A stretch of DNA of 64,000 nucleotides, from positions 6,014,001-6,078,000 of the forward strand of contig NZ_AP022590.1 of NCBI RefSeq assembly GCF_010731775.1, in the 5' to 3' direction. Shown here one piece after another: positions 15,635 to 30,693 of this stretch (positions are counted from its first letter, which is position 1; the number at the start of each line of letters is the position of its first letter). Origin of the DNA: Mycobacterium mantenii (GTDB taxonomy: Bacteria; Actinomycetota; Actinomycetes; Mycobacteriales; Mycobacteriaceae). The position numbers and the translations under genes are program-made. Below the pieces are notes generated by a model that saw only the letters and a list, made by a program, of their open reading frames with translations, was not told the origin of the DNA and did no database searches.

Positions 15635-17122
15635 TTACAACAGGCCCAGTTCTCGCGCCCGCCTAACCGCCGCGCTGCGGTGCTCGACGCGGAGCTTGCG
15701 GTACACGGCGCGCTGGTGGGTCTTCACGGTGTTGAGCGAGACATATAGCCGCGCACCGATTTCAGTTCGCGATAACCGGGTGGGCAGCAGGCGAAGAACC
15801 TCAAGCTCCTTGGGCGTCAACTCCTCACCGACCGCGCACCCGACGTGGCGCGAAGTCACCCCCACGTCCGCGCTCAGCTCGGCCGTGGCGAGGACATCAG
15901 CACTGCGCGCGATGTCACCACCGCCGACCAGGTGGCGCCTCGCCTCATCGATTAGCCCCTCGGTCTCGAACCAGGTCGCCGCGCGTCGGTGCAGATCGGC
16001 GACGAGATCGGGCTCGGTGCGACGCAGCTCGGTGCGCAACAGCTCTGCGAACAGCTGGTGATAGCGATACCAGTGACGCGACATGTCCAGCGGCACCACA
16101 AACAGGTTTTCGCGCTCGACCATCTCCAAAACCGAGGCCGAGCCAGACGTTTGGAGCACCGCGTCGCACAACGGACCGCTGAGTCGTCCCAAGACCGAGG
16201 TACGGAGCAAAAAGTCACGAAGGTGCGGTGGTTGACCGTCGAGCACCTCGGCCATCAAGTAGTCGACGATGTGACGGTTGTCGCCGGCGAAGGTCTGAAT
16301 AAATGCTGCGGCATCGGTGCGACCGGCCAACGACAGTCCGGCGAGATACAGTCCCGCGGCCCACCCCTCCGTGCGGCGAAACAGCAGTTGGACTTGCGCG
16401 TCGGTCAACGTCAAACCGAGCACGCCGTCAAGCAGGTCCGCGGCCTCGCCGGTCTGAAAGCGCAACTCCTCAGCCCGCAGCTCCAGCAGCTCGCCGCGGG
16501 CGCGCAACCGCGCCAACGGCAGCAGGGGATCCGAGCGGGTGGCGATGACCAGCTGGAAATTTCGCGGCATCCGTTCCACCACGAAACCCACCTGCTCATG
16601 CACGGTCTTATTTTCAACAAGGTGATAGTCGTCGAGGATCAGCGCGACCTGGTGGTCGATGGCGGCCAACTCGTCGAGCAGGGTGGGCAAGACCACCTGT
16701 CGAGGGTCGGCACCTATCGTGATGAGCTCGAACGCACGGGGCGCCACCCCCGGGCTGGCCTTGCCCAGCGCCGCGATCGCACAGCCCCAAAATCGCGCCG
16801 GATCATTGTCGGACGCATCAAGGGACACCCAACCCCGTCGACGGCGGTCATCGGCGCCGCTTACCCATTGCGCCAAAAGCGTCGTCTTGCCCCAGCCCGC
16901 CGGCGCACTGAGCAACGCGAGCTTGCGAGAGGGTTCCGCCGAAAGGATGTCGATCAGGGCTGCCCGTTCGATGAGCTGAGCGCGGATCGCCGGTGGTGCC
17001 GTCTTTCCGGCAAGTAGCACCGCCGGCTCGCCGGCTTCAGTCGGTGCTTTGCCCTCGAAGTCGAAGAGGATCGGCGTGACGCACAGCAGATCGGCGATCG
17101 TTGAGCTGTCTGCCACTATCAT
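15635..17122 (-). CDS. MalT/LuxR-type ATP-dependent regulator, compact form
   Basis: A 495-residue STAND-type transcription regulator. The P-loop APAGWGKTT lies at residues 73-81, Walker B LILDDYHLV near 165, and a LuxR HTH occupies the last 65 residues (LTPKELEVLRLLPTRLSRTEIG and SLNTVKTHQRAVYRKL). MalT-type proteins are usually 850-900 residues, with a long TPR-like sensor between the ATPase and HTH; here only a few dozen residues separate them, so most of the sensor is missing. The reading frame is intact. It is convergent with the repeat protein and lies 79 bases downstream of the MocR gene on the same strand. Confidence 0.85.
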   Translation of the reverse strand: MIVADSSTIADLLCVTPILFDFEGKAPTEAGEPAVLLAGKTAPPAIRAQLIERAALIDILSAEPSRKLALLSAPAGWGKTTLLAQWVSGADDRRRRGWVSLDASDNDPARFWGCAIAALGKASPGVAPRAFELITIGADPRQVVLPTLLDELAAIDHQVALILDDYHLVENKTVHEQVGFVVERMPRNFQLVIATRSDPLLPLARLRARGELLELRAEELRFQTGEAADLLDGVLGLTLTDAQVQLLFRRTEGWAAGLYLAGLSLAGRTDAAAFIQTFAGDNRHIVDYLMAEVLDGQPPHLRDFLLRTSVLGRLSGPLCDAVLQTSGSASVLEMVERENLFVVPLDMSRHWYRYHQLFAELLRTELRRTEPDLVADLHRRAATWFETEGLIDEARRHLVGGGDIARSADVLATAELSADVGVTSRHVGCAVGEELTPKELEVLRLLPTRLSRTEIGARLYVSLNTVKTHQRAVYRKLRVEHRSAAVRRARELGLL

Positions 17123-17201: not shown

Positions 17202-18614
17202 TCAGGGCAGCAGTCGGATCAAGGCGTCCAACGCCGCCGACCATGCGCTCGGCGAGGGCGCCGCAAACCCCACTACTAAGCCGTTCCGCTTGCTGCCGGC
17301 TTCGGGATGGCGAAACAGATCAAGACCGTCCACACCGAGCCGTCGCCACGCCCGTTGACGAGACAGCGCGCTCTCGTCGGCCCCGGCAAGCTCAAGCATC
17401 ACCTGCAGACCCGCGGGCATTCCCGCGACGGTGGTCGTCGGTGATGACCGGGCGACAGCGGCGACGAGTTGCTCGCGGCGGCGCCGGTACTGGGCGCGCA
17501 TGGTGCGAATGTGTCTGTCATAGGAACCGGACACGATGAATTCGGCCATCGCCAACTGGTCAACGAAGCCGGACGTCTCCTCGCGTTCACCCCTCTGCCG
17601 GCCCACCGCATGGACGAGTCGGTCTGGCAGCACCAGCCACCCGAGCCGAAGCCCCGGCGCCAGCGACTTGCTCGCCGTCCCCATATAGATGACATGTTCG
17701 GGATCGATGCCCTGCAGCGCACCGACAGGGCCACGGTCGTAGCGGAATTCGCCGTCGTAATCATCTTCGATGATCAGTCCGCCGGTACGTCGCGCCCAAT
17801 CGACGACGGCTGCGCGGCGGTCGGACCACAGAGGCACGCCCAGCGGGAACTGGTGCGACGGAGTGAGCAGCACACCGCCCGCATCTGCAATGCCGTCGAG
17901 GGCCATAACATCAGCGCCATGAGAGTCCACTGTCAGTGGGGGGCAACGTAACTGCGCTCGAGCGAGCGACGCCCGCTGTGCCCGCAGGCCAAATGATTCG
18001 ACGGCGACAGCGGCGACCCCGGCTTCTGCCAGCGCGGCGGCCACGAGGTTCAATCCTTCAGCGGCGCCGCTGCAGATGACGATGTTGTCCGGCCGGGCCC
18101 GAACTCCCCGAGCACGAGCGAGATACTCGGCAAGGGCGCTGCGAAGCTCCGGGCGCCCCTGGGGGTCGGCGTAGCCGAACGCCTCGAACGGGGCATCGTT
18201 CAACGCGCGCTTGACAGCACGACTCCATTCCATCCGTGGAAACGACGACAGGTCCGGATGCCCCGGTCGCAAGTCGTGGTCCAACTCGTGCTGTGTCGGT
18301 CGTTTAGGGGGTGAAGCCACGGACCGGACGACTTCAGCCGCACGTTGGGCAACCAATGTGCCCGAGCCGTGTTGTGATGTCAGCCAGCCCTCGGCGATGA
18401 GTTCGGCGTACGCACGGGCGACGGTGTTTCTCGCAACTCCGAGGTCGGCGGCCAGCGCGCGACTCGAGGGCAACTGGATGCCCGGCACCAATCGCCCCGA
18501 ACGGATCGCGTCGCGAATGGCTTCCATGACACCATCACGCACCCTGCCGCCGGGGCGATCCAGGTAAAGATCCAACCCGGCGACCGAGCTTTGTGATCCG
18601 GTCGTTGCGCGCAT
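17202..18614 (-). CDS. MocR/PdxR-type GntR regulator with aminotransferase domain
   Basis: A 470-residue regulator. The N-terminal GntR winged helix (residues 18-85, PSSRALAADLGVARNTVARAYAEL) is fused to a fold-type I aminotransferase domain (about 110-470). The PLP lysine is in MGTASKSLAPG, and the DDYDGEFRYD motif is typical. MocR proteins sense PLP adducts or amino-acid derivatives. It is divergent from the redox operon that starts at 18792, and the palindromic element at 18704-18749 lies between them, making it the best candidate regulator of that operon. Confidence 0.92.
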   Translation of the reverse strand: MRATTGSQSSVAGLDLYLDRPGGRVRDGVMEAIRDAIRSGRLVPGIQLPSSRALAADLGVARNTVARAYAELIAEGWLTSQHGSGTLVAQRAAEVVRSVASPPKRPTQHELDHDLRPGHPDLSSFPRMEWSRAVKRALNDAPFEAFGYADPQGRPELRSALAEYLARARGVRARPDNIVICSGAAEGLNLVAAALAEAGVAAVAVESFGLRAQRASLARAQLRCPPLTVDSHGADVMALDGIADAGGVLLTPSHQFPLGVPLWSDRRAAVVDWARRTGGLIIEDDYDGEFRYDRGPVGALQGIDPEHVIYMGTASKSLAPGLRLGWLVLPDRLVHAVGRQRGEREETSGFVDQLAMAEFIVSGSYDRHIRTMRAQYRRRREQLVAAVARSSPTTTVAGMPAGLQVMLELAGADESALSRQRAWRRLGVDGLDLFRHPEAGSKRNGLVVGFAAPSPSAWSAALDALIRLLP

Positions 18615-18703
18615 GTCCGTGCTCGTGGTGGTTACCAGTGGGCGATTGGGCAGCTCCTGGGGCTTGGCAAAGCGGTATTAAGACTACGCTCTGATGCCTG
18701 TGC

Positions 18704-18749
18704 ACTCACCCGGGTGAATTAGCTCGCCGGGTGATGACGACTCACCCCG
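18704..18749. promoter_or_regulatory. Bipartite palindromic operator, copy A
   Basis: Part 1 is ACTCACCCGGGTGAAT (18704-18719), containing the perfect palindrome TCACCCGGGTGA. After a 9-base spacer, part 2 is GGGTGATGAC-GA-CTCACCCCG (18729-18749), an inverted repeat of the same half-site GGGTGA/TCACCC. A third weaker pair (GGTGA...TCACC) lies at 18754-18771. The same two parts with the same 9-base spacer recur at 26478-26523. It lies in the divergent region between the MocR regulator and its probable target operon. Confidence 0.8.
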
Positions 18750-18791
18750 TGCCGGTGAACGCTGAATCACCAGTTGGCGAGCGGAGGACAA

Positions 18792-19037
18792 GTGCAGTCG
18801 ACGATGTACCGGATCTGCGTTCGAGGCCGCGTGACCGAGCGGCTCGGTTCCGCATTGGAAGGGATGCGGCTCGAGGCCGGTGCGACCGAAACCGCGTTCA
18901 CGGGTGAAATCCGCGACCAGTCACAGCTTTACGGACTCCTCGACCGGGTCCGTGATCTCGGCCTTGAGCTCGTCAGCGTACAACCGCAGCCTGCGGCTGA
19001 CCCGAGAACGACAACCGGAATCAGGAAGGACCTGTAA
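18792..19037 (+). CDS. Small protein leading the redox operon
   Basis: An 81-residue soluble protein of unrecognised family. A strand-helix pattern (MYRICVRGRV...LGSALEGM...TAFTGEIRDQSQLYGLLDRVRDLGLELVSVQP) suggests a ferredoxin-like or ACT-like alpha/beta fold. GTG 18792 has GGAGGA seven bases upstream; an internal ATG at 18804 is an alternative. Its stop overlaps the next start (TAATG). Its position first in an operon with an oxidoreductase, cupin and RidA suggests a small regulatory or binding role. Confidence 0.7.
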   Translation: MQSTMYRICVRGRVTERLGSALEGMRLEAGATETAFTGEIRDQSQLYGLLDRVRDLGLELVSVQPQPAADPRTTTGIRKDL

Positions 19038-19957
19038 TGCAAGCAATCACCGTTTCAGATCGTGACGCCGGTGTCGCTGGCCTGGCGTTGGTAGAACTGC
19101 CCTACCCGCAACCGGCCGACAACGACGTCGTCGTGCGGGTGCACGCCGCGGGCTTCACGCGCACGGAGCTTGAATGGCCGCACACCTGGACCGACCACGC
19201 GGGCCGCGACCGGACACCGAGCGTGCCCGGACATGAGCTGTCGGGTGTGGTGGTTGAGTTAGGTTACGGCGCCACCGGTTTGAGCGTCGGTCAGCGGGTG
19301 TTCGGGCTTGCCGACTGGGCGCGCAATGGCTCGCTGGCGGAGTACACCGCTGTCGAAGCCCGCAATCTCGCACCGTTACCAATCGACATCGACCACACCG
19401 TGGCCGCGGCGCTGCCCATCTCTGGATTGGCGGCCTGGCAGGGCCTGTTCGACCACGGCCGCCTCGCCGCCGGGCAAACGGTCCTCATTCACGGCGCCGC
19501 GGGTGGGGTTGGGTCGCTCGCGGTGCAGCTGGCTCGCGAGGTCGGCGCGCGCGTCATCGGTACCGGCCGGGCCGCAGATCGCGAGCGGGCGGCCGAGCTC
19601 GGTGTCCACACGTTCCTCGACCTGGACACCGAAAAGCTCGAGGAAGCAGGCGAAGTCGATGTGGTGTTCGACGTGATCGGCGGAGACATTCTGGCCCGCT
19701 CGGCGGATCTGGTGCGGGCTGGCGGAACGCTCGTCGCCATCGCCGAGCCGCCGAAGACCCTGCCGCGCGATGGGCGGGCAGTCTTCTTCGTTGTCGAAGC
19801 CGATCGCGCCCAGCTCGCCGGCCTCGCCGCGCGAGTACGAGATGGACGTCTCAAGCCGGTGGTGAGTGCCGTGCTTCCACTCGCCGAAGCTGCCGCGGCG
19901 TTCGCTCCCGGCAAGCGCACCCCCGGCAAGACGATCCTGCGCGTCGTTGAAGGCTGA
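19037..19957 (+). CDS. NADP-dependent quinone oxidoreductase-like (MDR family)
   Basis: A 306-residue medium-chain reductase of the zinc-free quinone oxidoreductase group. It has a GroES-like N-terminal domain (PGHELSGVVVELG at about 55-67) and a Rossmann domain with HGAAGGVGSLAVQLA near 152-166. The Cys and His zinc ligands of alcohol dehydrogenases are absent. It probably reduces quinones or enones with NADPH. It is translationally coupled to the small protein ahead, with a cupin, a RidA and an MFS pump behind, suggesting detoxification of reactive carbonyls or quinones. Confidence 0.88.
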   Translation: MQAITVSDRDAGVAGLALVELPYPQPADNDVVVRVHAAGFTRTELEWPHTWTDHAGRDRTPSVPGHELSGVVVELGYGATGLSVGQRVFGLADWARNGSLAEYTAVEARNLAPLPIDIDHTVAAALPISGLAAWQGLFDHGRLAAGQTVLIHGAAGGVGSLAVQLAREVGARVIGTGRAADRERAAELGVHTFLDLDTEKLEEAGEVDVVFDVIGGDILARSADLVRAGGTLVAIAEPPKTLPRDGRAVFFVVEADRAQLAGLAARVRDGRLKPVVSAVLPLAEAAAAFAPGKRTPGKTILRVVEG

Positions 19958-19977
19958 AAAAAGGAAGGCAGCCAAAA

Positions 19978-20412
19978 ATGGACCTAAAAATGCCACTCAC
20001 CGCACTGACGGTTGCAGTGATGCTCGCGCCTGCAGCCCACGCCCAGCCGGTGCCAGAGAATTCGGATCAAAACCCGGTTGTCCGACCAGTTTTCAATCAA
20101 CCCACCAATGTGCCGGGCAAATCACTTCAAGCAGTGACCGTCAGCTATCCACCCGGAGCGAAAAGCGGAGCTCACCGCCACGCGAAATCGGCGTTCATCA
20201 TGGCCTACGTGATCTCCGGAGCGATCCGCAGCCAGGTCGAAGGTGAGCCTGCACGCGTCTATCACGCCGGTGAGACGTGGAGCGAAGCCCCCGGCGCACA
20301 CCACACGACCAGTGAAAATGCCAGCGCCTCCGAACCCGCTGAGTTACTCGCGGTCTTCCTGGTCGATACCGGCGATGGCCCGCTCACCACGGACGACGAC
20401 GCGAAAACATGA
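19978..20412 (+). CDS. Exported cupin-domain protein
   Basis: A 144-residue protein with a signal peptide (MPLTALTVAVMLAPAAHA, likely cleaved before QPVPE) and a single cupin barrel. Metal-ligand motif 1 is GAHRHAKSAFIMAYVISG, and motif 2 is degenerate (PGAHHTTSENAS). It is probably a metal-binding exported enzyme or sensor of unknown substrate. The ribosome site GGAAGG precedes ATG 19978 with a gap of 20 bases from the oxidoreductase gene. Confidence 0.85.
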   Translation: MDLKMPLTALTVAVMLAPAAHAQPVPENSDQNPVVRPVFNQPTNVPGKSLQAVTVSYPPGAKSGAHRHAKSAFIMAYVISGAIRSQVEGEPARVYHAGETWSEAPGAHHTTSENASASEPAELLAVFLVDTGDGPLTTDDDAKT

Positions 20413-20460
20413 GCCTTGATCAATCCGGACGAAAACCTCACACCACCAAGGAGTGGCGAG

Positions 20461-20853
20461 ATGACCACCATTACTCCGATCTTCACTGGAGTGGCCGCCC
20501 ACATCGCCGAATACGCCGACGCTGTTGCCGTATCCGGTCGCGGCGGCACGCAGATTTTCGTCTCCGGTACGCCCGGCCTGCGCGAAGACGGCACCCGGCC
20601 TGAGGACTTCACCGACGAAGCCCGGCAGTGCTGGGCCAACGTCGAATGCGCGCTGGGCAAGGCCGGCGCCAAGCTCACCGACATTGTCTACATGCGCCAA
20701 TGGATCACCAGCCGTGACAATGCGTCCGCCTACCTGGCGGTGAGCAAAGAGATCATCCGCCACCAACCCGCCGCCATGTTCAGCATCATCGATGGGCTGG
20801 TATGGCCCAACGTCCGCGTGGAAGTCGAAGTCACCGCCATCCTGCCGGCATGA
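20461..20853 (+). CDS. RidA (YjgF/YER057c) family deaminase
   Basis: A 130-residue protein of the Rid family, trimeric barrels that hydrolyse reactive enamine/imine intermediates. Visible features are FVSGTPGLREDGTRPEDF, ECALGKAGAKLTDIVYMRQWI and the C-terminal NVRVEVEVTAIL. The substrate-binding Arg usual before VEVE is present (VRVEVE). ATG 20461 follows GGAGTGGCG. RidA next to a PLP-domain MocR regulator is suggestive, since imine intermediates come from PLP enzymes. Confidence 0.88.
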   Translation: MTTITPIFTGVAAHIAEYADAVAVSGRGGTQIFVSGTPGLREDGTRPEDFTDEARQCWANVECALGKAGAKLTDIVYMRQWITSRDNASAYLAVSKEIIRHQPAAMFSIIDGLVWPNVRVEVEVTAILPA

Positions 20854-20944
20854 GCAGTTACCGGCGACGCGGGGCATTTCGACCGATGGTGAGCCGCAAC
20901 GGGTCTGGCGCCCCGCCACCGTCACGCGCCGAACGGAGCTCGCA

Positions 20945-22411
20945 GTGACATTGCGCGAGGCGGCACCCACCAGCCGCGCGATGGTGGTCGCGGTGATGGT
21001 GTCCATGGTGGCGTTCCTCGACTCCACCGTGATCAACCTGGCGTTGCCGGCCACCGAACACGACCTCGGGGGCGGCCTGACGCTGCAGCAATGGATCATC
21101 GACGGCTACCTGTTGGCGATGGCGGCCGCGATTTTGCCCGGCGGGTCCATCTCGGATCTGTTCGGACGCGTTCCGGCGATGCGATTCGGGCTGTTGGCTT
21201 TCGGGACGGGCTCGGTTCTGGCGGCGGTTGCGACCTCCCCGGCGATGCTGATCACCGCGCGCCTCATCCAGGGTCTGGGTGCGGCGTTCCTCGTGCCGGG
21301 CTCGCTGGCGCTGATCAACACGGTGTTCGACAAAGCACACCAGCCGGCGGCGGTCGGCGTCTGGACCGGGTGGACGGGAACCGCCTTCGCGCTGGGCCCC
21401 CTGCTGGGCGGCATGTGCGTCGATTTCCTCGGCTGGCGTTGGATTTTCGTGTTGTCGGCGATCCCCATGGCGGTCGGGTATGCGCTGACGTTCTGGTTGT
21501 GCCCGATGTCGGGGCGGGTCGAGGGCGCCCGAGTCGATATCACCGGGGCGGGCCTATCGGCGGTAGGGCTGGCCGCCACCGTGTATGCGTTGATCGAATC
21601 GCAACGCGACGGCTGGACCGACCCGATGGTCATCACACCATCAGTGATCGGGGCCGCCGCGCTGGCCGGATTCGTGAGCTGGCAGCGCCGCAGTAGGTCT
21701 CCGATGCTTCCGTTGCCGCTGTTCACCTTTCGCAACTTCGCCGCGGCCAATCTCGTCACCGCGTTCGTCTACGGCGCGCTGACGCTCGGCTCGCTGGCCA
21801 TCGCCCTCTACACCCAAGAAGTCGGCGGCTACTCAGCCACCGCGACCGGACTGGCCACCCTGCCGATCCCGGCGCTGTCGTTCGTGTTCGCAAGCCACGT
21901 CGGCCGCATCGCCGCGCGAGTGGGGCCACGCGTGTTCCTGATCGCCGGACCCGCGTTGGCGGGGATCGGGCTGCTGCTGATCCGCCCGAAAGCCAATGGA
22001 TTTCACGTGATCACCGACCTGGTCCCCGGGATCACCGTGCTGGCCATCGGGCTGGTCGCGACTATCACACCGCTGACGTCGGTGACGCTGGCCTCGGTGC
22101 CGACCGAACACAGCGGCCTGGCATCGGCGGTCAACAACGCGGTCTCGCGGCTGGCCGCGCTGATGTCGATCGGGTCCATGGGCCTGATCAGCGTCGGCAC
22201 GAGCGCCACCGGATTCGCCCACGTGTTAGAGGTGAGCGCCGCGCTGTTTGCCCTGGGCGCGTTGTGCTCCGCGCTTGTGATAACCAACCCTCCTGCCGGG
22301 TGCCAACCTGTGCCCTGCGACATCGCAGCCTTGTGCCGCGATCGGCCCGGCGTGCAACCAGCCCTGGCCAGCAGGCCCTCGGCCGCGGTCGAACCGTCGC
22401 CTCCGCAGTGA
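20945..22411 (+). CDS. MFS transporter, EmrB/QacA (DHA2) family
   Basis: A 488-residue drug/proton antiporter with about 14 predicted helices. The DHA2 motif DSTVINLALPA in helix 1, WIIDGYLLAMAAAILPGGSISDLFGR (motif A) and GxxxGPLLGG (motif C, ALGPLLGG) are present. GTG 20945 with GGAGC upstream is chosen; the frame remains open further upstream over the RidA 3' end. It ends the redox operon and probably exports the compound class that the operon handles. Confidence 0.88.
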   Translation: MTLREAAPTSRAMVVAVMVSMVAFLDSTVINLALPATEHDLGGGLTLQQWIIDGYLLAMAAAILPGGSISDLFGRVPAMRFGLLAFGTGSVLAAVATSPAMLITARLIQGLGAAFLVPGSLALINTVFDKAHQPAAVGVWTGWTGTAFALGPLLGGMCVDFLGWRWIFVLSAIPMAVGYALTFWLCPMSGRVEGARVDITGAGLSAVGLAATVYALIESQRDGWTDPMVITPSVIGAAALAGFVSWQRRSRSPMLPLPLFTFRNFAAANLVTAFVYGALTLGSLAIALYTQEVGGYSATATGLATLPIPALSFVFASHVGRIAARVGPRVFLIAGPALAGIGLLLIRPKANGFHVITDLVPGITVLAIGLVATITPLTSVTLASVPTEHSGLASAVNNAVSRLAALMSIGSMGLISVGTSATGFAHVLEVSAALFALGALCSALVITNPPAGCQPVPCDIAALCRDRPGVQPALASRPSAAVEPSPPQ

Positions 22412-22613
22412 TCGTTCGCCCGGGAAAGGCAATAGTGAAAAGCGCTGCAGCCGAGTTGTTTGACAGTCGCGAGATGCACGCTGCTGCTGCAGTGCGTCGG
22501 TCTGGCGGCCACGCCGGGAATCAACTCGACCGCTATGGCGTTCGGCTAGCCGTGGCGCAACTGAAGAGATGTCTTGATACCGGCCGGTCGACCATTCCCC
22601 ATCGGGAGGCACG

Positions 22614-23039
22614 GTGTTGACACTCCTCAAGCGGGCATGGGTTCCGCTGGTTGTGGCCGCGGCGCTGATCATCGGTGGCGTTGCCGTGGTGCGACTTAAC
22701 GGCGTTTTCCCAGGACCCGGCCTGCCCAAGCCCGATCCCCGGGATGCGACCCCGCCGTATGCGGCCAAGACCGCCATCTACGAAATCCTGGGACCGCCCG
22801 GGACGACCGGCGTCGTCAACTGGATGGATGCGGAGTCACTCCCGCAGAAGGCCAGCTTCACCACCTTGCCGTGGTCGAAGACGATCGTCGCCCAGATGCC
22901 CGGCATCTTCGCCTACGTCGTCGCCCAAGGTGACAGTCCCTCCATCGGTTGCCGCATCACCGTCGACGGCAAGTTGGTCGATCAACAACAGGCCAACACC
23001 CGGGACGCGCAGGTTTCCTGCTTGGACAAGTCCGCGTGA
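22614..23039 (+). CDS. MmpS-family membrane protein
   Basis: A 141-residue accessory protein of an MmpL transporter. One N-terminal helix (residues 8-27) anchors an extracytoplasmic beta-sandwich with the family pattern YEILGPPGTTGVVNWMD and GCRITVDGKLVDQQ...CLD. GTG 22614 follows GGGAGG. Its stop overlaps the mmpL start by four bases (GTGA), so the pair is co-translated. Confidence 0.93.
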   Translation: MLTLLKRAWVPLVVAAALIIGGVAVVRLNGVFPGPGLPKPDPRDATPPYAAKTAIYEILGPPGTTGVVNWMDAESLPQKASFTTLPWSKTIVAQMPGIFAYVVAQGDSPSIGCRITVDGKLVDQQQANTRDAQVSCLDKSA

Positions 23040-26005
23040 CCGACGACACGAGCGACACGGACAGAATCCCCGTCGCGCAGCGCACCTCAGTCGAACGCAG
23101 ACCACGTCTGGCCCGTACCATCCGCGTCCTGGCGCTGCCGATCGTCGTCGTCTGGCTGCTGATCGCGGTCGGCGTCAACGTCTTCGTCCCACAATTGGAG
23201 AAGGTTGCCGAGGACGTCTCGGTGCCGCTCTCGCCGTCCGACGCGCCCTCGGTGACCGGGATGAAGCACATCGGGCAGAAATTCAAGGAGTACGACTCCG
23301 ACAACCTCGTCCTGGTAACCCTGGTCGGTGACAAGCCTCTCGGCGAGGACGCTCACCGGTTTTACGACGATCTGGTCAAGAAGATCCAGCAGGACCACGA
23401 ACACGTCGAGCATGCGCTGAACTTCTGGGGACAGCGATTCACGGCCTCCGGTGTCGAGAGCTACGACCACAAGGCCGCCTACGTCCAGGTCAACCTGCGC
23501 GGCGACCAGGGCGGCGCGGTCGGCGACAAATCGGTTGCCGCGGTTCGAAAAATAGTCGCGGACTCGAAGCCGCCGGCGGGGGTGAAGGCCTATGTCGCCG
23601 GTCAGGGAGCCCTGACCGCCGACACGATCGTGGTCGGCGACGCGAGCCTGGCCAAGATGACGATCATCACCATCATCATCATCGCGATCATGCTGATGTT
23701 CGTCTATCGATCCATCGGCACGGTGCTGATGACGATGGTCATCCTGTTCGTCGGACTGGCCACCGGTCGCGGCGTGGTCGCGCTGCTGGGCAACACCGGC
23801 ATCATGGGGCTGTCGACCTTCGCCGTCAACTTGCTGACGGCACTGGCCATCGCGGCGGGTACCGACTACGCGATCTTCATGGTCGGCCGCTACCAGGAGG
23901 GCCGCGAACGGGGGCTGGACCGCGAAGCCGCCTACTACGACACTTTCGCCGGTGTCACCAGGGTGGTGCTGGGCTCGGGTTTGACGATCGTCGGGGCGCT
24001 GGCCTGTCTGAAATTCACTCGGCTGCCGTACTTCAGTTCGCTGGCGTTTCCGTGCGCGGTGGGTCTGCTGGTGGTGGTTGCCGCCGGGGTCACGCTGACG
24101 CCGGCGCTGATCGCCTTCGCAAGCGGCTTCGGCCTTTTCGACCCCAAGCGCGAGTTCAACTACACCCGGTGGCGCCGCTTGGCGACGGCCATCGTGCGGT
24201 GGCCCGCGCCCATCCTCGCCACCTCCGTCATCCTGGCGATCGTCGGCGCGATTGGCTTGATGGGCTTCACCCCGCGTTACAACGACCTCTACTACCTGCC
24301 GGAGAGTGCTTCGTCGGTAAAGGCGTACACCGCGGCCGATCAACACTTCACCCAAGCTCGTCTGAACCCAGACCTGCTGATGATCGAATCGGACCACGAT
24401 CTGCGCAATCCCCGAGACATGCTGGTCCTGGACAAGATTGCCGGCGCCATCTTCCGGGTGCCCGGCATCGAACGGGTGCAGAGCATCACCAGGCCGCTCG
24501 GCCCGCCGATTCAAGACGGATCCATTCCGTTCCAGCTCAGTGTGCAAAGCGCGCCGATCCGCAGCAACCTGAACTACTTGAAGGACCGCGTCGGCGACAT
24601 CAAGAAGATCACCGGTTTCCTCGACACTCAGATAGCACTGTTGGAGCGCCAGTACGCGGTGACCCAGAAGCTCGCGAACGCCGCGGACGACAGCTCGAAA
24701 ACAACGGGGGAGACGGCGGCCATCACGGACGAAATCCGGGATCACATCGCGGATTTCGACGACTTCTGGAGGCCGATTCGCAGTTACTTCTACTGGGAGA
24801 AGCACTGTTACGACATCCCGATCTGCTGGTCGCTACGAGCGCTCTTCGATGCGCTGGACGGGTTCGATCAGCTGGCCGATAAGTTCCACGCCCTCACCAG
24901 CGACCTCACCGACACGGCCAAGACCACGCGCGAATTGCTGGCGATCATTCCCGAGAATATCGCCGTCTCGAAATCGATCCGGGATACGACGCTGACCATT
25001 TACAGCTCGTTCGACAGCCTGATCGATCAGTTCGACCGGCTGACCGACACGAACGCCGTGATGGGCAAGTCCTTCAACGACTCTCAGGTGGAGAGCCTGT
25101 TCTACCTGCCACCCGAGATCTTCCAGAACCCAGACTTCTTGCTGGGGTTGAGCTTGATGGTATCGCCGGACGGCAAGGCTGCTCGCTTCATCATCACTCA
25201 CTCGGTGGATCCGGCGACGACGAAGGGAATCGCGTCTGTCGATCAGGAGCGCCAAGCCGCCAAGGAGGCACTGAAGCTCACCTCGCTGGAGGATGCCGAC
25301 ATCTACCTTGGCGGTACGGCCGCGACGTTTTATGACATCGCCAACGGCGCCAAGTACGACCTGATGATCGCCGGGGTGGCCTCGATCGTGCTCATCTTCA
25401 TCATCATGGTGATCGTCACCCGCGCTTTGGTCGCAGCGGGCGTCATCGTGGGCACCATCGTGATGTCGTTGGGGGCCGCCTTCGGGTTCTCGACACTGAT
25501 CTGGCAGCATCTTGGTAATTTCCAGTTACACTGGGTGGCAACCGAATTCGCCTTGATTGTGCTCTTGGCGGTGGGATCCGATTACAACCTGATGCTGGTA
25601 TCGCGAATCGAGGAGGAGATCGGAGCCGGCCTGAAGACGGGACTCATCCGTGGCATGGGTGTGACCGGCCCGGTGGTGACTGCCGCCGGTGTGGTGTTCG
25701 CCGTCACCATGGCCACGATGATCACCAGCGATCTCCGGGCGATCGGCCAATTCGGAACGACGATCGGCATCGGTCTGTTGTTCGACACCTTCGTCGTCCG
25801 ATCGCTCATCACGCCATCGATCATGACGGTGATGGGACGCTGGTTCTGGTGGCCGAAGCGGGTACGCGTACGGCCGGCCAGCCAGATGCTTCGGTCCGTG
25901 GGGCCGCGCCCGCTGGTTCGTGCTCTGTTGTACCACCCGCGGCACGGGGCCCTCCCCCTCGAATCCGCGGACGTACCATCCGGCACAGTAGGCGCCGCGA
26001 AGTGA
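23036..26005 (+). CDS. MmpL-family RND lipid transporter
   Basis: A 989-residue RND exporter of lipids or siderophores, with 12 predicted helices and two periplasmic loops. The two proton-relay Asp-Tyr pairs are visible in GTDYAIFMVGRYQEG (helix 4) and GSDYNLMLVSRIEEE (helix 10). The long second loop contains coiled-coil-like segments (residues 520-700). It lies between two modules that share an operator, so its cargo may be related to lipids modified by the neighbouring P450, but that is inference. Subfamily MmpL4/5-like by length. Confidence 0.94.
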   Translation: MTDDTSDTDRIPVAQRTSVERRPRLARTIRVLALPIVVVWLLIAVGVNVFVPQLEKVAEDVSVPLSPSDAPSVTGMKHIGQKFKEYDSDNLVLVTLVGDKPLGEDAHRFYDDLVKKIQQDHEHVEHALNFWGQRFTASGVESYDHKAAYVQVNLRGDQGGAVGDKSVAAVRKIVADSKPPAGVKAYVAGQGALTADTIVVGDASLAKMTIITIIIIAIMLMFVYRSIGTVLMTMVILFVGLATGRGVVALLGNTGIMGLSTFAVNLLTALAIAAGTDYAIFMVGRYQEGRERGLDREAAYYDTFAGVTRVVLGSGLTIVGALACLKFTRLPYFSSLAFPCAVGLLVVVAAGVTLTPALIAFASGFGLFDPKREFNYTRWRRLATAIVRWPAPILATSVILAIVGAIGLMGFTPRYNDLYYLPESASSVKAYTAADQHFTQARLNPDLLMIESDHDLRNPRDMLVLDKIAGAIFRVPGIERVQSITRPLGPPIQDGSIPFQLSVQSAPIRSNLNYLKDRVGDIKKITGFLDTQIALLERQYAVTQKLANAADDSSKTTGETAAITDEIRDHIADFDDFWRPIRSYFYWEKHCYDIPICWSLRALFDALDGFDQLADKFHALTSDLTDTAKTTRELLAIIPENIAVSKSIRDTTLTIYSSFDSLIDQFDRLTDTNAVMGKSFNDSQVESLFYLPPEIFQNPDFLLGLSLMVSPDGKAARFIITHSVDPATTKGIASVDQERQAAKEALKLTSLEDADIYLGGTAATFYDIANGAKYDLMIAGVASIVLIFIIMVIVTRALVAAGVIVGTIVMSLGAAFGFSTLIWQHLGNFQLHWVATEFALIVLLAVGSDYNLMLVSRIEEEIGAGLKTGLIRGMGVTGPVVTAAGVVFAVTMATMITSDLRAIGQFGTTIGIGLLFDTFVVRSLITPSIMTVMGRWFWWPKRVRVRPASQMLRSVGPRPLVRALLYHPRHGALPLESADVPSGTVGAAK

Positions 26006-26157
26006 TCTGGGAGGTAATGTTTTACGGCTCAGGTTAGGCGTACGCTGCGCCTTCCTGGCCGTTGGAGGAGCGTCTGCTTTCTGATCTCTACGTCCGGTCG
26101 ACGGGGCCGGTAGAACACCCCCCGGAACGAACAAAGAAAAATCCGACGGCGATCGGT

Positions 26158-26376
26158 CTACGTTTGGTGCCGCGCCGCCATGGCGGCTTCGCGCCGAGCC
26201 TTCTCTTTCACGTGGGTCGAGCAGCAATGCCCCATTTCGCAATGGAATCGGTCACTGCATTCATGCGAGCAATAGATTGATGCGGCCGGAAGCCAGTCCG
26301 GATCGGACAGGTCACGCGGCAGGGCGCTCGGATCGAACGTGTGGCCGCAATGTGCGCAGGTCTTGGTCTTGACCAT
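26158..26376 (-). CDS. Small Cys-rich zinc-ribbon-like protein
   Basis: A 72-residue protein starting MVKTKTCAHCGHTFD. Cysteines form a CxxC knuckle (CAHC), then CSHEC and a terminal HCEMGHCC, enough for one or two zinc sites. ATG 26376 is chosen because the Cys motif starts just after it; upstream in-frame sequence is featureless and no clear ribosome site is seen. Function unknown; it might bind nucleic acid or act as a metal chaperone. It is convergent with mmpL. Confidence 0.65.
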   Translation of the reverse strand: MVKTKTCAHCGHTFDPSALPRDLSDPDWLPAASIYCSHECSDRFHCEMGHCCSTHVKEKARREAAMAARHQT

Positions 26377-26477
26377 AAAGGTCAGGGTACGCCCAACGGC
26401 CCAAATCGAATGCTGGTTTCGCCTCGACAGCAAACAACCTTTCGCAAGAGCGGCCACGCGCCATCGGGGTCCGGTCT

Positions 26478-26523
26478 ACTCACCCGGGTGAATGGGTGGT
26501 TGGGGTGATGACAGCTCACCCCG
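26478..26523. promoter_or_regulatory. Bipartite palindromic operator, copy B
   Basis: ACTCACCCGGGTGAAT at 26478-26493, a 9-base spacer, then GGGTGATGAC-AG-CTCACCCCG at 26503-26523. All 35 core bases equal copy A at 18704-18749, while the 9-base spacer and the 2-base centre differ. That pattern, conserved half-sites with free spacers, is what selection on a protein-binding site would leave. It lies 148 bases upstream of the SDR start. Confidence 0.8.
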
Positions 26524-26670
26524 CCTGGCTGCAGTCTCAGTACGACCACAACCGGACGGGATTTGTCACCGCGGTTGCGGGGCGCCCCAGCAGACGGGCT
26601 TACCGGCGTCGCCGATGCGAAGACTGCGGTGCAGCCGGAGCCGTCAGGAGAACCAGGAAGGATCCCGCAT

Positions 26671-27441
26671 ATGCATTTTGAGGCCAAGAAGGTCGTTGTT
26701 GTCGGCGGCAGTGCCGGCATCGGTCGGCAGGTCGCGATGGACATCGTCGATCACGGCGGTAGCGCTGTGATCGTCGGCCTGTCGAACGACCGTGTCGACG
26801 ACACCGTCGCTGAGCTCATGAGCCGGGGTGGCCAAGCCTGGGGGATCGCCGCCGAGTTGACGGACCGCGGTGCCGTCGCCGATGTGCAGCGCGCGCTTTC
26901 CGGGCAGCACGGCGATGCGACGTTGTTGGTCAACGCGGCCGGATTCTTTGTTCCCAAGCCGTTTCTCGAGTATGACGCGGTGACCTATGACTCGTACATG
27001 GAGCTCAACTACGCGTTGTTCTTCCTGACGCAGACCGTCGTCGAGGGCATGATCGTCCGCGGGGAAGGCGGGGCGATCGTCAACATCGGCAGCATGTGGG
27101 CGCATCAGGCGATCGGTGTGACCCCATCGTGTGGGCATTCGATGCAAAAAGCCGGGCTGCATGCGCTGACCCACAACCTGGCCATCGAGCTTGCCGGGCA
27201 CAAGATCCGCGTCAATGCGGTGGCACCGGGCGCTGTCAAGACCGCCGCCCTCGAGCGGTGGGTCCCGAAGGACGAGATCGACGCCACCCTTGACACTTTC
27301 GCGCCGCTTCATCCATTGGGACGAGTCGGCACCCCCGCCGATGTCGCCAACGCCGTCACGTATCTGCTCTCTGATCAGGCCAACTGGGTCACCGGTGCGA
27401 TTCTCAACGTCGACGGCGGCATCATGGCCGGCCGCAACTGA
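26671..27441 (+). CDS. SDR-family oxidoreductase with Tyr-to-His active site
   Basis: A 256-residue short-chain dehydrogenase. The cofactor loop is GGSAGIGRQ (residues 12-20), the NAG-equivalent is NAAGFF, and the active-site Ser is in NIGSMWA. The catalytic Y-x3-K is replaced by H-S-M-Q-K (codon CAT, one transition from TAT), so classical proton transfer by Tyr is lost. The C-terminus [11 protein letters not shown] is normal. ATG 26671 follows AGGAAGGA. It shares operator copy B and is followed 99 bases later by a P450 fusion, so it may act on the P450 product or bind it without catalysis. Confidence 0.88.
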
Positions 27442-27540: not shown

Positions 27541-30500
27541 ATGACCGAGTTCCGTGCGTCGCCGCCGCCGGATCTTCCCGGCATCCCCTCGGCCGAGGGA
27601 CCGTTGCCCGGTCCGGAGCAGTTGGTCGGCCGCCCCCGGGCGTTGCCCGTGGACTTACTCGGCGAGTTGCACGGTCCGCTGTTCTACGCCGACTTCAACG
27701 GCGGCTTCAGGAAGCTGTACGCGTGCTCGCTGGAGCTCGTCACCGAGCTTTGCGACGAGAGCCGCTTCGCGAAGAACCTGACGGCAACCCTTGCTCGAGT
27801 CAGGCCCTTGGCCGGTGACGGTCTGTTCACGGCCTACCACGGCGAACCGAACTGGCAGCGCGCCCACGATGTGCTGCTACCGGGTTTCAGTTACGCGGGT
27901 CTGCGCGCCTACCACCCGGCGATGCTGGACATCAACCGCAAAATGATCGAGCGCTGGGACGCCAGCGCGGGAGTCGGACCGGTGGACGTGTCCACCGACT
28001 TGCAGAAGCTGGCCATGGACACCGTGGCGCTCGCCGGATTCGGTTCGCGCTTCGATTCTTTCGACTACCCCGGCCTGGCCCCTATCCCACAGAGCTTCAC
28101 AATTGCGCTGGGGGAGTTGACATCTGACACGCCCACGCCGGTGTTCACCGAACAATTGGCCACCTTGCACACGTTCATCGACGGACTGATAGCCGAGCAT
28201 CGATCCGGTGACCGTGAGTCTGAGGACCTGTTGGCGCTGATGCTGCAACAGGATCCGAACGGCAAACCGGTGCTCGAAACGCAGAATATCCGCAATCAGA
28301 TCATGACTTTCCTGATCGCGGGGCAGCTCACCACATCGGAGCTGATGCCCAACACGCTGTACAACATCGTCAGCGATCCGACGGTCCTGCATCGGGTGCA
28401 GGCCGAGGTGGACACCGTTTTCGCGACCGACGACGACTACCTGCCCGGCTATGACGACATCGGCAAGCTGACCTACCTGCGGCAGGTCATCGAGGAGACC
28501 CTGCGGTTGTCCCCGCCGGTGCTGAACTTCGATCGAATGGCCCTGGAAGACACCGTGATCGGTGGCCAGCATCCGATCAAGCGCGGCGAGGCGGTCACGG
28601 TGCTCACCGGCGCCCTGCACCGCCAGCCGCAGTGGGGCGACAATGTCGAACTCTTCGATCCCGACCGCTTCGCTCCCGATCGTTCGGCTTCCCGGCCGGC
28701 CGCGTTGTTCAAACCCTTTGGCACCGGTGCACGATCCTGCATCGGCCGTCAGTTCGCGCTGCACGAGGCGGCCATGGCGCTGGCCCGGCTCGTCCATCGC
28801 TACCGCCTCATCGACGCCTACCACTATGTGCCGCAGTGGGAAACCCCGACCAGCCGCCGGCCGGTTGGGTTCCGACTCGACGTGCTTCGGCGCACACCGC
28901 AGGACCGCCAGACCGGCACACCTGCCGTCGAGGCCGCGGCCGGGCCGAATGCAGAGCAGCGCCCAACGGCTATCACGGCCGGCACCAGGCTGGCCATTTT
29001 GTACGGTTCGAACCTCGGCACCTGCCGCGCGCTGGCCCGCCAATTCGCCGACGATGCCACGGCATTAGGCTGCACGGCGACGGTGGCCCCCCTCGACGAT
29101 GCCGTTGGTGGCTTCCCCGAAGCCGAGGCCCTCGTGATCATCGCGTCCTCGTACAACGGACAGCCGACCGACGACGCGCGCGCCTTCCTCACCTGGCTGC
29201 TCGACGCGAATACCACGCTGAGTCCGAGGCCCAATGTCGCGGTTCTCGGTGTGGGTGACCACAACTGGGCGGACACCTACCAGGCGATCCCGCAGCGCAT
29301 CGATGAACGCCTCGGCGAGCTGGGAGCCAACCGATTGGTCCCGCGGGCAGCAGCCGACACCTCGGGGGATATGGTCGGCACGATCGAGGAGTTCGCCGCC
29401 GCGCTGTGGGCATCGCTGGCCGAACGCTTCGGAGACCCCGACGCCGCGCCACTCACGGATGCGGCCGAACCGCTCTACGAGTTGCGCCGGATCGTCGGGC
29501 CGGTGACGGCCGCGATGGACGCACGGTCGTCGGTGATCCCGATGACCATCGTCGAGAACACCCAACTGGTCAGCCCCGGGCTGGGTCAAGCCAAAACCAG
29601 TGTCCGCGTCGACCTTCCGGACGGCGTCGACTACCAAACGGGCGACCACCTCACGGTGATGGCCGACAATCCACCCGAGGTAGTCGACGCGGTTTTGGCG
29701 CAACTCGGCATCGACCCTGGACTGAGGCTGGCAATCAACCCTCGGCGCAGCTCGCGGCGGCTCATTGCGCTGGATCGAGAGGTCAGCGCACGAGAACTGC
29801 TGACGCACTTCGTCGAATTGCGGAAACCGGTGACCAGCAGTCAGTTACGAAGCCTTGCGGCGGCCAACAGCAATCCTGAAGAGTGCCAGCGGCTTAACCA
29901 ACTGGCCGAGGCCCCAGACGGCTGCCCGCTCAGCGTGTTCGAGTGCCTCGACGAATACCCGGCTTGCGTTCTCACCGGTGCCGAACTCCTCGAACTGCTC
30001 GACCCCATGGTGCCGAGGCACTATTCAATCGCGTCATCGTCAATGCTGTCACCACGCACGGTAGGACTGGTCGTCAGTGTGCTCGATGCGCCGGCTCGTT
30101 CCGGTCACGGCCTGTTCAAGGGCGTCGCGTCCAACTACCTCGCGACAGTCCAACCCGGACAAGTGATCCGGGCGCGGGTGGACCCGGCTCGGCAGGCGTT
30201 CCGGGCCGGTGCCGATCCGGCCAAGAACGTGATCCTGGTCAGCGCCGGTACCGGTGTCGCACCGTTTCTCGGTTTCCTCGGTGACCGACTCGCCGCACAG
30301 CGTGCCGGAATGCCGGTGGAGCCGGCGCTGTGCTTCTTCGGGGTGCGTGATCCGGAGGTCGACTACATCTTCCGAGACCGGTTCGAGCAGGCCGAAGCCA
30401 TCGGTATCGTGCAGATGCGCCCGGCCTTCTCTCGCGCGCCGCAGGACGGGGTTCGCTACGTGCAGGACCGGATCGCCGCGGACGCCGACGAGGTGTGGAA

Positions 30501-30693
30501 CCTGCTAGGCGACCCGGCCAAGGACACCCACGTCTACGTGTGCGGCGACGGCGCACGGATGGCGCCGTCGGTGCGCGGGTCCTTCCTCGACATCTATCGG
30601 GCACGGACGGGCGATGACGACGAGCAGGCCCGCGATTGGCTGAACGCTCTCATCGAATCCGACCACTACGTCGAGGATGTGTGGGCGGGGTGA
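27541..30693 (+). CDS. Self-sufficient cytochrome P450/NADPH-P450 reductase (CYP102-like)
   Basis: A 1050-residue P450 BM3-type fusion; length matches BM3 (1049). Haem domain, residues 1-460: EETLR (ExxR), FDPDRF, and cysteine loop FGTGARSCIG. FMN flavodoxin domain, about 480-640: LYGSNLGT, SYNGQPTD, GDHNWADTY. FAD/NADPH domain, 660-1050: RHYSIAS, SAGTGVAPFLGF and C-terminal VEDVWAG. BM3-like enzymes hydroxylate fatty acids. The I-helix reads AGQLTTS where BM3 has AGHETTS, so the conserved acid next to the Thr is Leu; oxygen activation may be altered. ATG 27541 is chosen because the first P450 residues follow it. Confidence 0.94.
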   Translation: MTEFRASPPPDLPGIPSAEGPLPGPEQLVGRPRALPVDLLGELHGPLFYADFNGGFRKLYACSLELVTELCDESRFAKNLTATLARVRPLAGDGLFTAYHGEPNWQRAHDVLLPGFSYAGLRAYHPAMLDINRKMIERWDASAGVGPVDVSTDLQKLAMDTVALAGFGSRFDSFDYPGLAPIPQSFTIALGELTSDTPTPVFTEQLATLHTFIDGLIAEHRSGDRESEDLLALMLQQDPNGKPVLETQNIRNQIMTFLIAGQLTTSELMPNTLYNIVSDPTVLHRVQAEVDTVFATDDDYLPGYDDIGKLTYLRQVIEETLRLSPPVLNFDRMALEDTVIGGQHPIKRGEAVTVLTGALHRQPQWGDNVELFDPDRFAPDRSASRPAALFKPFGTGARSCIGRQFALHEAAMALARLVHRYRLIDAYHYVPQWETPTSRRPVGFRLDVLRRTPQDRQTGTPAVEAAAGPNAEQRPTAITAGTRLAILYGSNLGTCRALARQFADDATALGCTATVAPLDDAVGGFPEAEALVIIASSYNGQPTDDARAFLTWLLDANTTLSPRPNVAVLGVGDHNWADTYQAIPQRIDERLGELGANRLVPRAAADTSGDMVGTIEEFAAALWASLAERFGDPDAAPLTDAAEPLYELRRIVGPVTAAMDARSSVIPMTIVENTQLVSPGLGQAKTSVRVDLPDGVDYQTGDHLTVMADNPPEVVDAVLAQLGIDPGLRLAINPRRSSRRLIALDREVSARELLTHFVELRKPVTSSQLRSLAAANSNPEECQRLNQLAEAPDGCPLSVFECLDEYPACVLTGAELLELLDPMVPRHYSIASSSMLSPRTVGLVVSVLDAPARSGHGLFKGVASNYLATVQPGQVIRARVDPARQAFRAGADPAKNVILVSAGTGVAPFLGFLGDRLAAQRAGMPVEPALCFFGVRDPEVDYIFRDRFEQAEAIGIVQMRPAFSRAPQDGVRYVQDRIAADADEVWNLLGDPAKDTHVYVCGDGARMAPSVRGSFLDIYRARTGDDDEQARDWLNALIESDHYVEDVWAG

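What the first reader, a model, noticed from the sequence alone, without database searches (positions are those of the whole stretch)
18704..26523. One 46-bp bipartite palindromic element guards two separate oxidative gene modules
Copy A (18704-18749) and copy B (26478-26523) share all 35 core bases: ACTCACCCGGGTGAAT, then nine free bases, then GGGTGATGAC, two free bases, and CTCACCCCG. Both parts are inverted repeats of the half-site TCACCC/GGGTGA. The spacers differ completely while their lengths are equal, which is the pattern expected of a conserved protein-binding site, not of recent duplication alone. A lies upstream of a quinone reductase–cupin–RidA–MFS operon, B upstream of an SDR–CYP102 pair. 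I infer a local two-operon regulon not tied to any regulator I know.
Basis: partly seen in the sequence, partly recalled or inferred. Interest (0 to 1): 0.86.

Follow-up and report, generated by a model that had tools for sequence, protein, structure and literature searches.

The report
Shared promoter of a mycobacterial redox island
The two matching 46-base elements are copies of a nearly invariant promoter that, in related mycobacteria, sits in front of many oxidative-damage-type operons and is most likely switched on by a MalT-like LuxR-family protein, of which this genome keeps only a shortened version.

Summary
In detail: the 46-bp pattern occurs at 18704-18749 and 26478-26523 and, within 3 mismatches, nowhere else in this genome. 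The reading changes. The element is one end of a ~58-bp promoter: in 231 aligned copies it runs on into a fixed -10 hexamer (A at -11 in 227, T at -7 in 225, T at -12 in 0), and its second part straddles a -35 hexamer. Of 396 genomes of the genus 61 have a match, up to 16 copies, often packed into 30-60 kb of redox genes. A MalT-like LAL/LuxR ortholog is in 47 of those 61, in 41 of 41 with four or more sites, and in 0 of 90 site-less genomes tested; the MocR in 11 of 61 and 1 of 30. LAL relatives lie on 4 of 6 fetched non-mycobacterial site loci. The window's LAL (15635-17122) lacks its TPR region but keeps its HTH. Best explanation: a MalT-type activator's promoter-operator, of which this genome keeps a two-operon remnant. 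Closest precedent: Actinoplanes' MalT-activated region (PMC7567727). New variant of a known kind; binding and inducer untested.

The parts
18704..18749 (+). Element copy A: palindrome TCACCCGGGTGA 18706-18717; arm GGGTGA 18729-18734 / TCACCC 18742-18747
18734..18739 (+). -35-like hexamer of copy A (ATGACG), inside the arm
   Evidence: positions 28-33 of the 231-site profile; sigma assignment inferred
18758..18763 (+). -10-like hexamer of copy A (AACGCT), 18 bp after the -35; inferred start of transcription about 18770
   Evidence: start site inferred
26478..26523 (+). Element copy B: palindrome 26480-26491; arm GGGTGA 26503-26508 / TCACCC 26516-26521
26508..26513 (+). -35-like hexamer of copy B (ATGACA)
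   Evidence: sigma assignment inferred
26532..26537 (+). -10-like hexamer of copy B (CAGTCT); inferred start of transcription about 26544
   Evidence: start site inferred
15635..17122 (-). Shortened MalT-like LAL/LuxR regulator (495 aa): P-loop ATPase part + C-terminal GerE HTH, TPR region absent; best candidate binder
   Evidence: dN/dS; binding inferred
17202..18614 (-). MocR/GntR regulator; neighbour, not the general binder
18792..19037 (+). ~81-aa conserved small protein (YRI-x-RG motif), first gene of operon A, stop overlaps start of the reductase
19037..19957 (+). Quinone oxidoreductase (zinc-type ADH/QOR)
19978..20412 (+). Cupin
20416..20853 (+). RidA/YjgF family protein (PF01042)
20981..22411 (+). 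MFS-type transporter (named by eye; island family F9)
22614..23039 (+). MmpS-like membrane protein (PF05423), may lie in the same operon
23036..26005 (+). MmpL-like transporter (named by eye; island family F11)
26671..27441 (+). SDR oxidoreductase (family F12, the commonest first gene behind the element: 7 of 27)
27541..30693 (+). CYP102-type P450-reductase fusion

Best explanation
Each 46-bp element is the upstream part of a ~58-bp activator-dependent promoter. Shown by alignment: a 12-bp palindrome TCACCC-GGGTGA (centre about -58), an inverted pair GGGTGA-N7-TCACCC that straddles a -35-like hexamer (aTGACa), and, 18 bp on, a -10-like hexamer with A(-11) and T(-7) but never T(-12). Inferred: an ATP-driven MalT-like LAL/LuxR protein binds the GGGTGA half-sites through its GerE domain and recruits RNA polymerase to a promoter too weak to fire alone. 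In many mycobacteria the full-length protein would control an island of redox genes; in the window's lineage the regulator has lost its TPR (presumed sensor) region and two target promoters remain, for the small protein-QOR-cupin-RidA-MFS(-MmpSL) operon and the SDR-CYP102 operon.
For: Pattern and rarity. 61 of 396 genus genomes match, many with clustered copies; reversed-pattern control hits in 3 of 396, one each. 0 of 42 sites in 8 mapped regions lie inside a called gene (68% of random positions do); 27 of 42 have a co-oriented next gene within 600 bp (22% at random). -35/-10 geometry in 231 sites (225 have both A and T) and in 117 with dissimilar flanks: A 113, T 111, T(-12) 0. LAL ortholog (51-100% identity) in 47 of 61 genomes with a match and 41 of 41 with four or more sites; 0 of 90 site-less genomes tested (best 38% identity). 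Other regulators fit less well: F34 36 of 61, absent from G309 and G321 with 11 sites each; MocR 11 of 61. Outside Mycobacterium, 4 of 6 fetched site loci (L082, L104, L187, L189) carry a LAL of this type. The G046 protein is MalT-like by NCBIfam (394.8 bits) and PDB 8bob (E 2.6e-60); the half-site resembles the MalT box GGA(T/G)GA, and a MalT-like LAL of Actinoplanes activates a large region through half-sites overlapping -35 (PMC7567727). GerE of the short forms stays constrained (pairwise dN/dS 0.10-0.19, 70 codons).
Against: No binding or expression data. LAL and sites lie in one island, so co-inheritance alone could give the correlation, and related genomes are not independent. Seven genomes with element-like sites have no LAL ortholog (G061, G076, G089, G118, G247, G274, G283), five of them with a perfect site. 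F34 has no close ortholog (59% or more) in the 30 site-less genomes either, so it is also specific to site-bearing genomes, only less complete. L188 and L190 show no LAL of this type. Only 2 of 28 non-genus LAL relatives have the full palindrome within about 1.5 kb. Most variant palindromes change one half only (26 of 32). The window's LAL is shortened and could be inactive. The arm overlaps -35 and spacer, so repression is possible.
Confidence: 0.74

Rival explanations
1. The adjacent MocR (17202-18614) binds the element and controls both operons and itself.
For: Copy A lies in the mocR-QOR intergenic region; MocR sits beside the short or split LAL and site A in the window and in G110, G059, G290 and G031, and beside a full-length LAL in G033 and G077.
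Against: Close orthologs (73% identity or more) in only 11 of 61 genomes with a match; site-rich G001, G017, G080, G224, G238 and others have no match at 1e-60. In G345 a 79% MocR heads a cupin-QOR set with no element. mocR has a different conserved upstream block (18664-18692) in the five genomes with a short or split LAL.
Confidence: 0.07
2. Another island regulator (second LAL family F34, or the GAF/Fis-type F47) binds the element.
For: F34 (E 1e-150 or better) is in 36 of 61 genomes with a match and 3 of 30 without, those three being only 46-57% identical; F47 lies in the G046, G224 and G364 regions.
Against: F34 not found in site-rich G309, G321, G148, G154, G164 and G364 nor in the window's genome; the LALs at non-mycobacterial sites match F5 best. 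F47 not seen in the G017 and G077 regions (not searched genome-wide).
Confidence: 0.1
3. The element is the promoter of an alternative sigma factor with no dedicated DNA-binding regulator.
For: Fixed -35 to -10 distance and unusual T-less -12.
Against: The upstream palindrome and the second TCACCC inside the spacer have no role in a plain sigma promoter; TGAC and A(-11)/T(-7) fit the main sigma factor (general knowledge).
Confidence: 0.06
4. In this genome the two copies are non-functional relics of a lost island.
For: Short LAL; genomes with one site and no LAL; the G031 LAL is split in two frames; ATPase dN/dS higher in short (0.22-0.28) than full-length pairs (0.13-0.17).
Against: Both copies keep all fixed bases and both core promoter hexamers; short LAL ORFs are open in four genomes and GerE stays constrained (0.10-0.19).
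Confidence: 0.2

Closest known systems
MalT-activated large genomic region of Actinoplanes sp. SE50/110 (ACSP50_3915; PMC7567727: abstract, passages, section 13 and discussion read)
   Same: MalT-like LuxR/LAL inside a large region; near-identical operator overlapping -35 of many promoters (17 start sites there); proximal half-site at about the same place (there the motif ends 34.4 bases before the start; here about -41 to -36, start inferred); region rearranged between species.
   Different: Motif there is TCATCC-5nt-GGATGA; here TCACCC-0-GGGTGA upstream plus GGGTGA-N7-TCACCC over the -35. Genes listed there are of amino-acid type, here redox. Maltose-dependent there, inducer unknown here.
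E. coli / Klebsiella MalT regulon (MalT box GGGGA(T/G)GAGG, as quoted in PMC7567727)
   Same: STAND ATPase + GerE protein; GGRTGA-type half-sites near -35.
   Different: Score below the NCBIfam MalT cut-off; no maltose genes noticed in the mapped regions; GGGTGA rather than GGATGA is the main half-site.
E. coli rcl / reactive-chlorine response (RclR, RclA, RclC)
   Same: Island holds a RclA/MerA-like flavoprotein, a DUF417/RclC-like membrane protein, MsrA, MsrB and a molybdopterin oxidoreductase.
   Different: RclA and RclC scores are below equivalog cut-offs; RclR is an AraC-family activator (PMC10151825, passages), not a LAL.

Membership tests
LAL (large ATP-binding LuxR) regulator | N-terminal P-loop ATPase | tested here: met
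   SAPAGWGKTT in all 13 aligned forms; AAA_16/AAA_22 matches are below the Pfam cut-off
LAL (large ATP-binding LuxR) regulator | C-terminal LuxR/GerE HTH | tested here: met
   PF00196 45.9 bits in the window protein, 48.7 in the G046 protein, cut-off 23.5
MalT (strict) | Equivalog score of NF003420 | tested here: not met
   394.8 bits against cut-off 537, G046 protein
MalT (strict) | TPR_MalT sensor region | tested here: inconclusive
   26.2 bits, cut-off 45, in the full-length G046 protein; region absent from the window protein
MalT (strict) | Maltotriose-dependent activation | not testable with these tools
   needs biochemistry
Actinoplanes MalT region | Operator TCATCC-N5-GGATGA | tested here: not met
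   half-site spacings here are 0 and 7 in the site profile
Actinoplanes MalT region | Half-site overlapping -35 of many promoters in one region | tested here: met
   transcription starts inferred, not measured
Actinoplanes MalT region | Same genes | not tested
   only Table 1 of the paper was compared by eye
MocR-controlled operator | Regulator present wherever the operator is | tested here: not met
   11 of 61 at 73% identity or more
rcl reactive-chlorine operon | RclA and RclC equivalogs | tested here: not met
   RclA 160 of 740 bits, RclC 82.2 of 275 bits

The most novel reading that the evidence does not exclude
A previously undescribed LAL-driven oxidant-defence regulon of mycobacteria (possibly against hypohalous acids), mobile as an island, built on one stereotyped promoter that forbids T at -12 so that it is silent without the activator; in the window's lineage the activator has shed its TPR sensor and works as a sensor-less short form on just two promoters.
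Probability: 0.35. Interest if true: 0.76.

Novelty: new variant of a known kind. Interest (0 to 1): 0.6.

Why it matters
It gives an operator, a promoter architecture and a named candidate regulator for a redox island carried by many non-tuberculous mycobacteria, and a natural series from 16 sites plus full regulator, to 2 sites plus shortened regulator, to 1 site without it: a test case for how a clustered regulon decays. In the listings of eight searches of the held library I saw no paper describing this mycobacterial motif or regulon; the closest was the Actinoplanes region.

Tried and rejected
MocR as binder. Second LAL family as binder: less complete, but also specific to site-bearing genomes, so not excluded. 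Duplication of a whole segment. Chance. TANNNT scanning for a -10 gave only scattered hits; the -10 was seen in the column profile. Of the 61 genomes with a match, seven have only a 3-mismatch hit that does not look like the element: TCATCGGGGTG type in G025, G029, G086, G090, G332 and G369, and TCTCCCGGGTGACTC in G358; none has a LAL ortholog. They stay in the counts of 61; without them the LAL count is 47 of 54. The first LAL, MocR and F34 searches were given 50 of the 61 because of the 80-handle limit; the other 11 were searched later. Site-less genomes tested: 90 for the LAL, 30 for MocR and F34. Palindrome near LAL relatives elsewhere in the phylum: 2 of 28 non-genus loci, L199 and L204. 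The 12-mer in the literature: one unrelated paper, listing only. Searches for mycobacterial LAL/HOCl regulons: listings without a matching system.

Full report
WHAT WAS CHECKED. The 46-bp pattern is present with no mismatch at 18704-18749 and 26478-26523 and in none of 100 shuffles. A relaxed form with 24 fixed bases and up to 3 mismatches finds only these two in the 6,185,541-bp genome. The nine-base spacers share one base of nine, and around A and B only the element itself aligns.

THE ELEMENT ELSEWHERE. Of 396 genomes of the genus (an even draw, own genome included) 61 have at least one match with up to 3 mismatches; the reversed-pattern control hits 3 of 396, once each. Seven of the 61 have only a 3-mismatch hit that does not look like the element. 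Many of the rest have 5 to 16 copies, often packed into 30-60 kb (the listing of places was cut). In a phylum-wide draw of 396 genomes 6 have a match; the three outside the genus are G471, G505 and G426.

WHAT IT SITS IN FRONT OF. In eight mapped regions (the window and seven others) 0 of 42 sites lie inside a called gene (68% of random positions do), and 27 of 42 have a co-oriented next gene within 600 bp (22% at random). Of the other 15, ten have a co-oriented next gene further off (my gene caller misses small ORFs) and five face a gene on the other strand. The genes are mostly redox ones: QOR, SDRs, cupins, RidA, a nitroreductase-like protein, a RclA/MerA-like flavoprotein, a DUF417/RclC-like membrane protein, MsrA, MsrB, a molybdopterin oxidoreductase, transaldolase, with MFS and MmpS/MmpL transporters (those not covered by a family search were named by eye). 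The window keeps a small subset.

IT IS A PROMOTER. 231 unique sites with up to 3 mismatches (from the loci held) show conservation beyond the 46 bp: counting the first T of the palindrome as 0, A at 53 in 227, T at 57 in 225, both in 225, T at 52 in none. In 117 sites with dissimilar flanks the figures are 113, 111, 111 and 0. Positions 28-33 read aTGACa and the spacer to 52-57 is 18 bp: a main-sigma-type -35 and -10 with T(-12) avoided (sigma assignment inferred). Window copies: ATGACG/AACGCT (A) and ATGACA/CAGTCT (B). Of nine non-mycobacterial copies seven have A53 and T57; L199 and L204 have the same kind of hexamer one base upstream (by eye); none has T52. In some divergent pairs one palindrome is shared by two arms on opposite strands (G272, G077, G046). 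Of 32 variant palindromes among the 231, 6 change both halves (5 TCATCCGGATGA, 1 TCGCCCGGGCGA) and 26 change one half, so support from covariation is weak.

WHO BINDS. A MalT-like LAL of about 759 aa (family F5, G046 copy) was searched in all 61 genomes with a match and in 90 without. An ortholog (51-100% identity; full, short or split) is in 42 of 50 plus 5 of 11, that is 47 of 61, and in 0 of 90 (best 38% identity, 300 bits). All 41 genomes with four or more sites have it full-length. Of the 14 without it, seven are the doubtful hits above and seven (G061, G076, G089, G118, G247, G274, G283) have one or two element-like sites, a perfect one in five. F34, a second LAL family, is in 36 of 61 and in 3 of 30 site-less genomes, the three only 46-57% identical; it was not found in G309 and G321, with 11 sites each. 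The MocR, at 73% identity or more, is in 11 of 61 and 1 of 30. Outside the genus, four of six fetched site loci (L082, L104, L187 of G471, L189 of G505) carry a LAL of this type; L188 (G505) and L190 (G426) do not. Of 28 non-genus LAL relatives examined, 2 have the full palindrome within about 1.5 kb. This is correlation, and LAL and sites share an island; binding is inferred.

THE WINDOW'S REGULATOR. The window LAL is 495 aa: ATPase part and GerE domain present, TPR region absent; likewise in G110, G059 and G290, with slightly different junctions. In G031 the gene is split in two frames. G000, G110, G059, G290 and G031 each have two sites. Pairwise dN/dS among short forms is 0.22-0.28 in the ATPase part (0.13-0.17 between full-length pairs) and 0.10-0.19 in GerE (0.09-0.17 between full-length pairs; 69-70 codons): some relaxation, but not free decay. 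These averages include time before the loss.

MECHANISM (inferred). GGGTGA half-sites resemble the MalT box. In Actinoplanes a MalT-like LAL, by deletion and overexpression, activates 40 of 51 genes of a region in which 17 start sites carry TCATCC-5nt-GGATGA ending 34.4 bases before the start (PMC7567727; abstract, passages, section 13 and discussion read). Here the proximal GGGTGA would span about -41 to -36, nearly the same place. So I propose activation by LAL oligomers on the upstream palindrome and the proximal box; the TCACCC in the spacer could add an off state. The inducer is unknown; gene content suggests oxidant or electrophile stress, but the RclA and RclC scores are below their family cut-offs.

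THE SMALL PROTEIN. The ORF after site A has 605 homologs; in the 120 listed the given names are hypothetical or uncharacterized, or none, save one called a YcjX-like ATPase. Relatives follow the element in L104, L187 and L188 and one lies between two LAL genes in L172.

Noticed in passing
18792-19037 and L104:889-1116, L187:10065-10289, L188:9137-9355, L172:11673-11930: A conserved ~75-90-aa protein family (YRI-x-RG motif, predicted beta-alpha-beta-beta-alpha-beta) that repeatedly follows the element or neighbours the LAL; no Pfam match for the window copy.
   Followed up: partly
18664-18692 (-): A separate conserved block (GTAGTCTTAGTACCGCTTT-like) upstream of mocR in the window, G110, G059, G290 and G031; the pattern used was not found in L194 (G033) or L195 (G345). 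Perhaps mocR's own promoter or operator.
   Followed up: partly
L195:7260-10078: In G345 a 79% MocR ortholog heads a MocR-cupin-QOR set with no element, so the MocR-QOR link exists without it.
   Followed up: partly
26158-26376, ORF extends to 26457 (-): Small cysteine- and histidine-rich ORF divergent from the SDR at copy B; no Pfam match.
   Followed up: no
L168:5943-7453: In G031 the LAL is split in two overlapping reading frames; intact relatives exist.
   Followed up: no
L202 (G618): Beside a 40%-identical LAL lies TCCCCTAGGGGA-N11-GGGTGAAGAC followed by TACGAT at the -10 distance: possibly a diverged version of the element.
   Followed up: no
G089, G118, G247, G274, G283: A perfect element kept in genomes with no LAL ortholog: recent loss or another binder.
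   Followed up: partly
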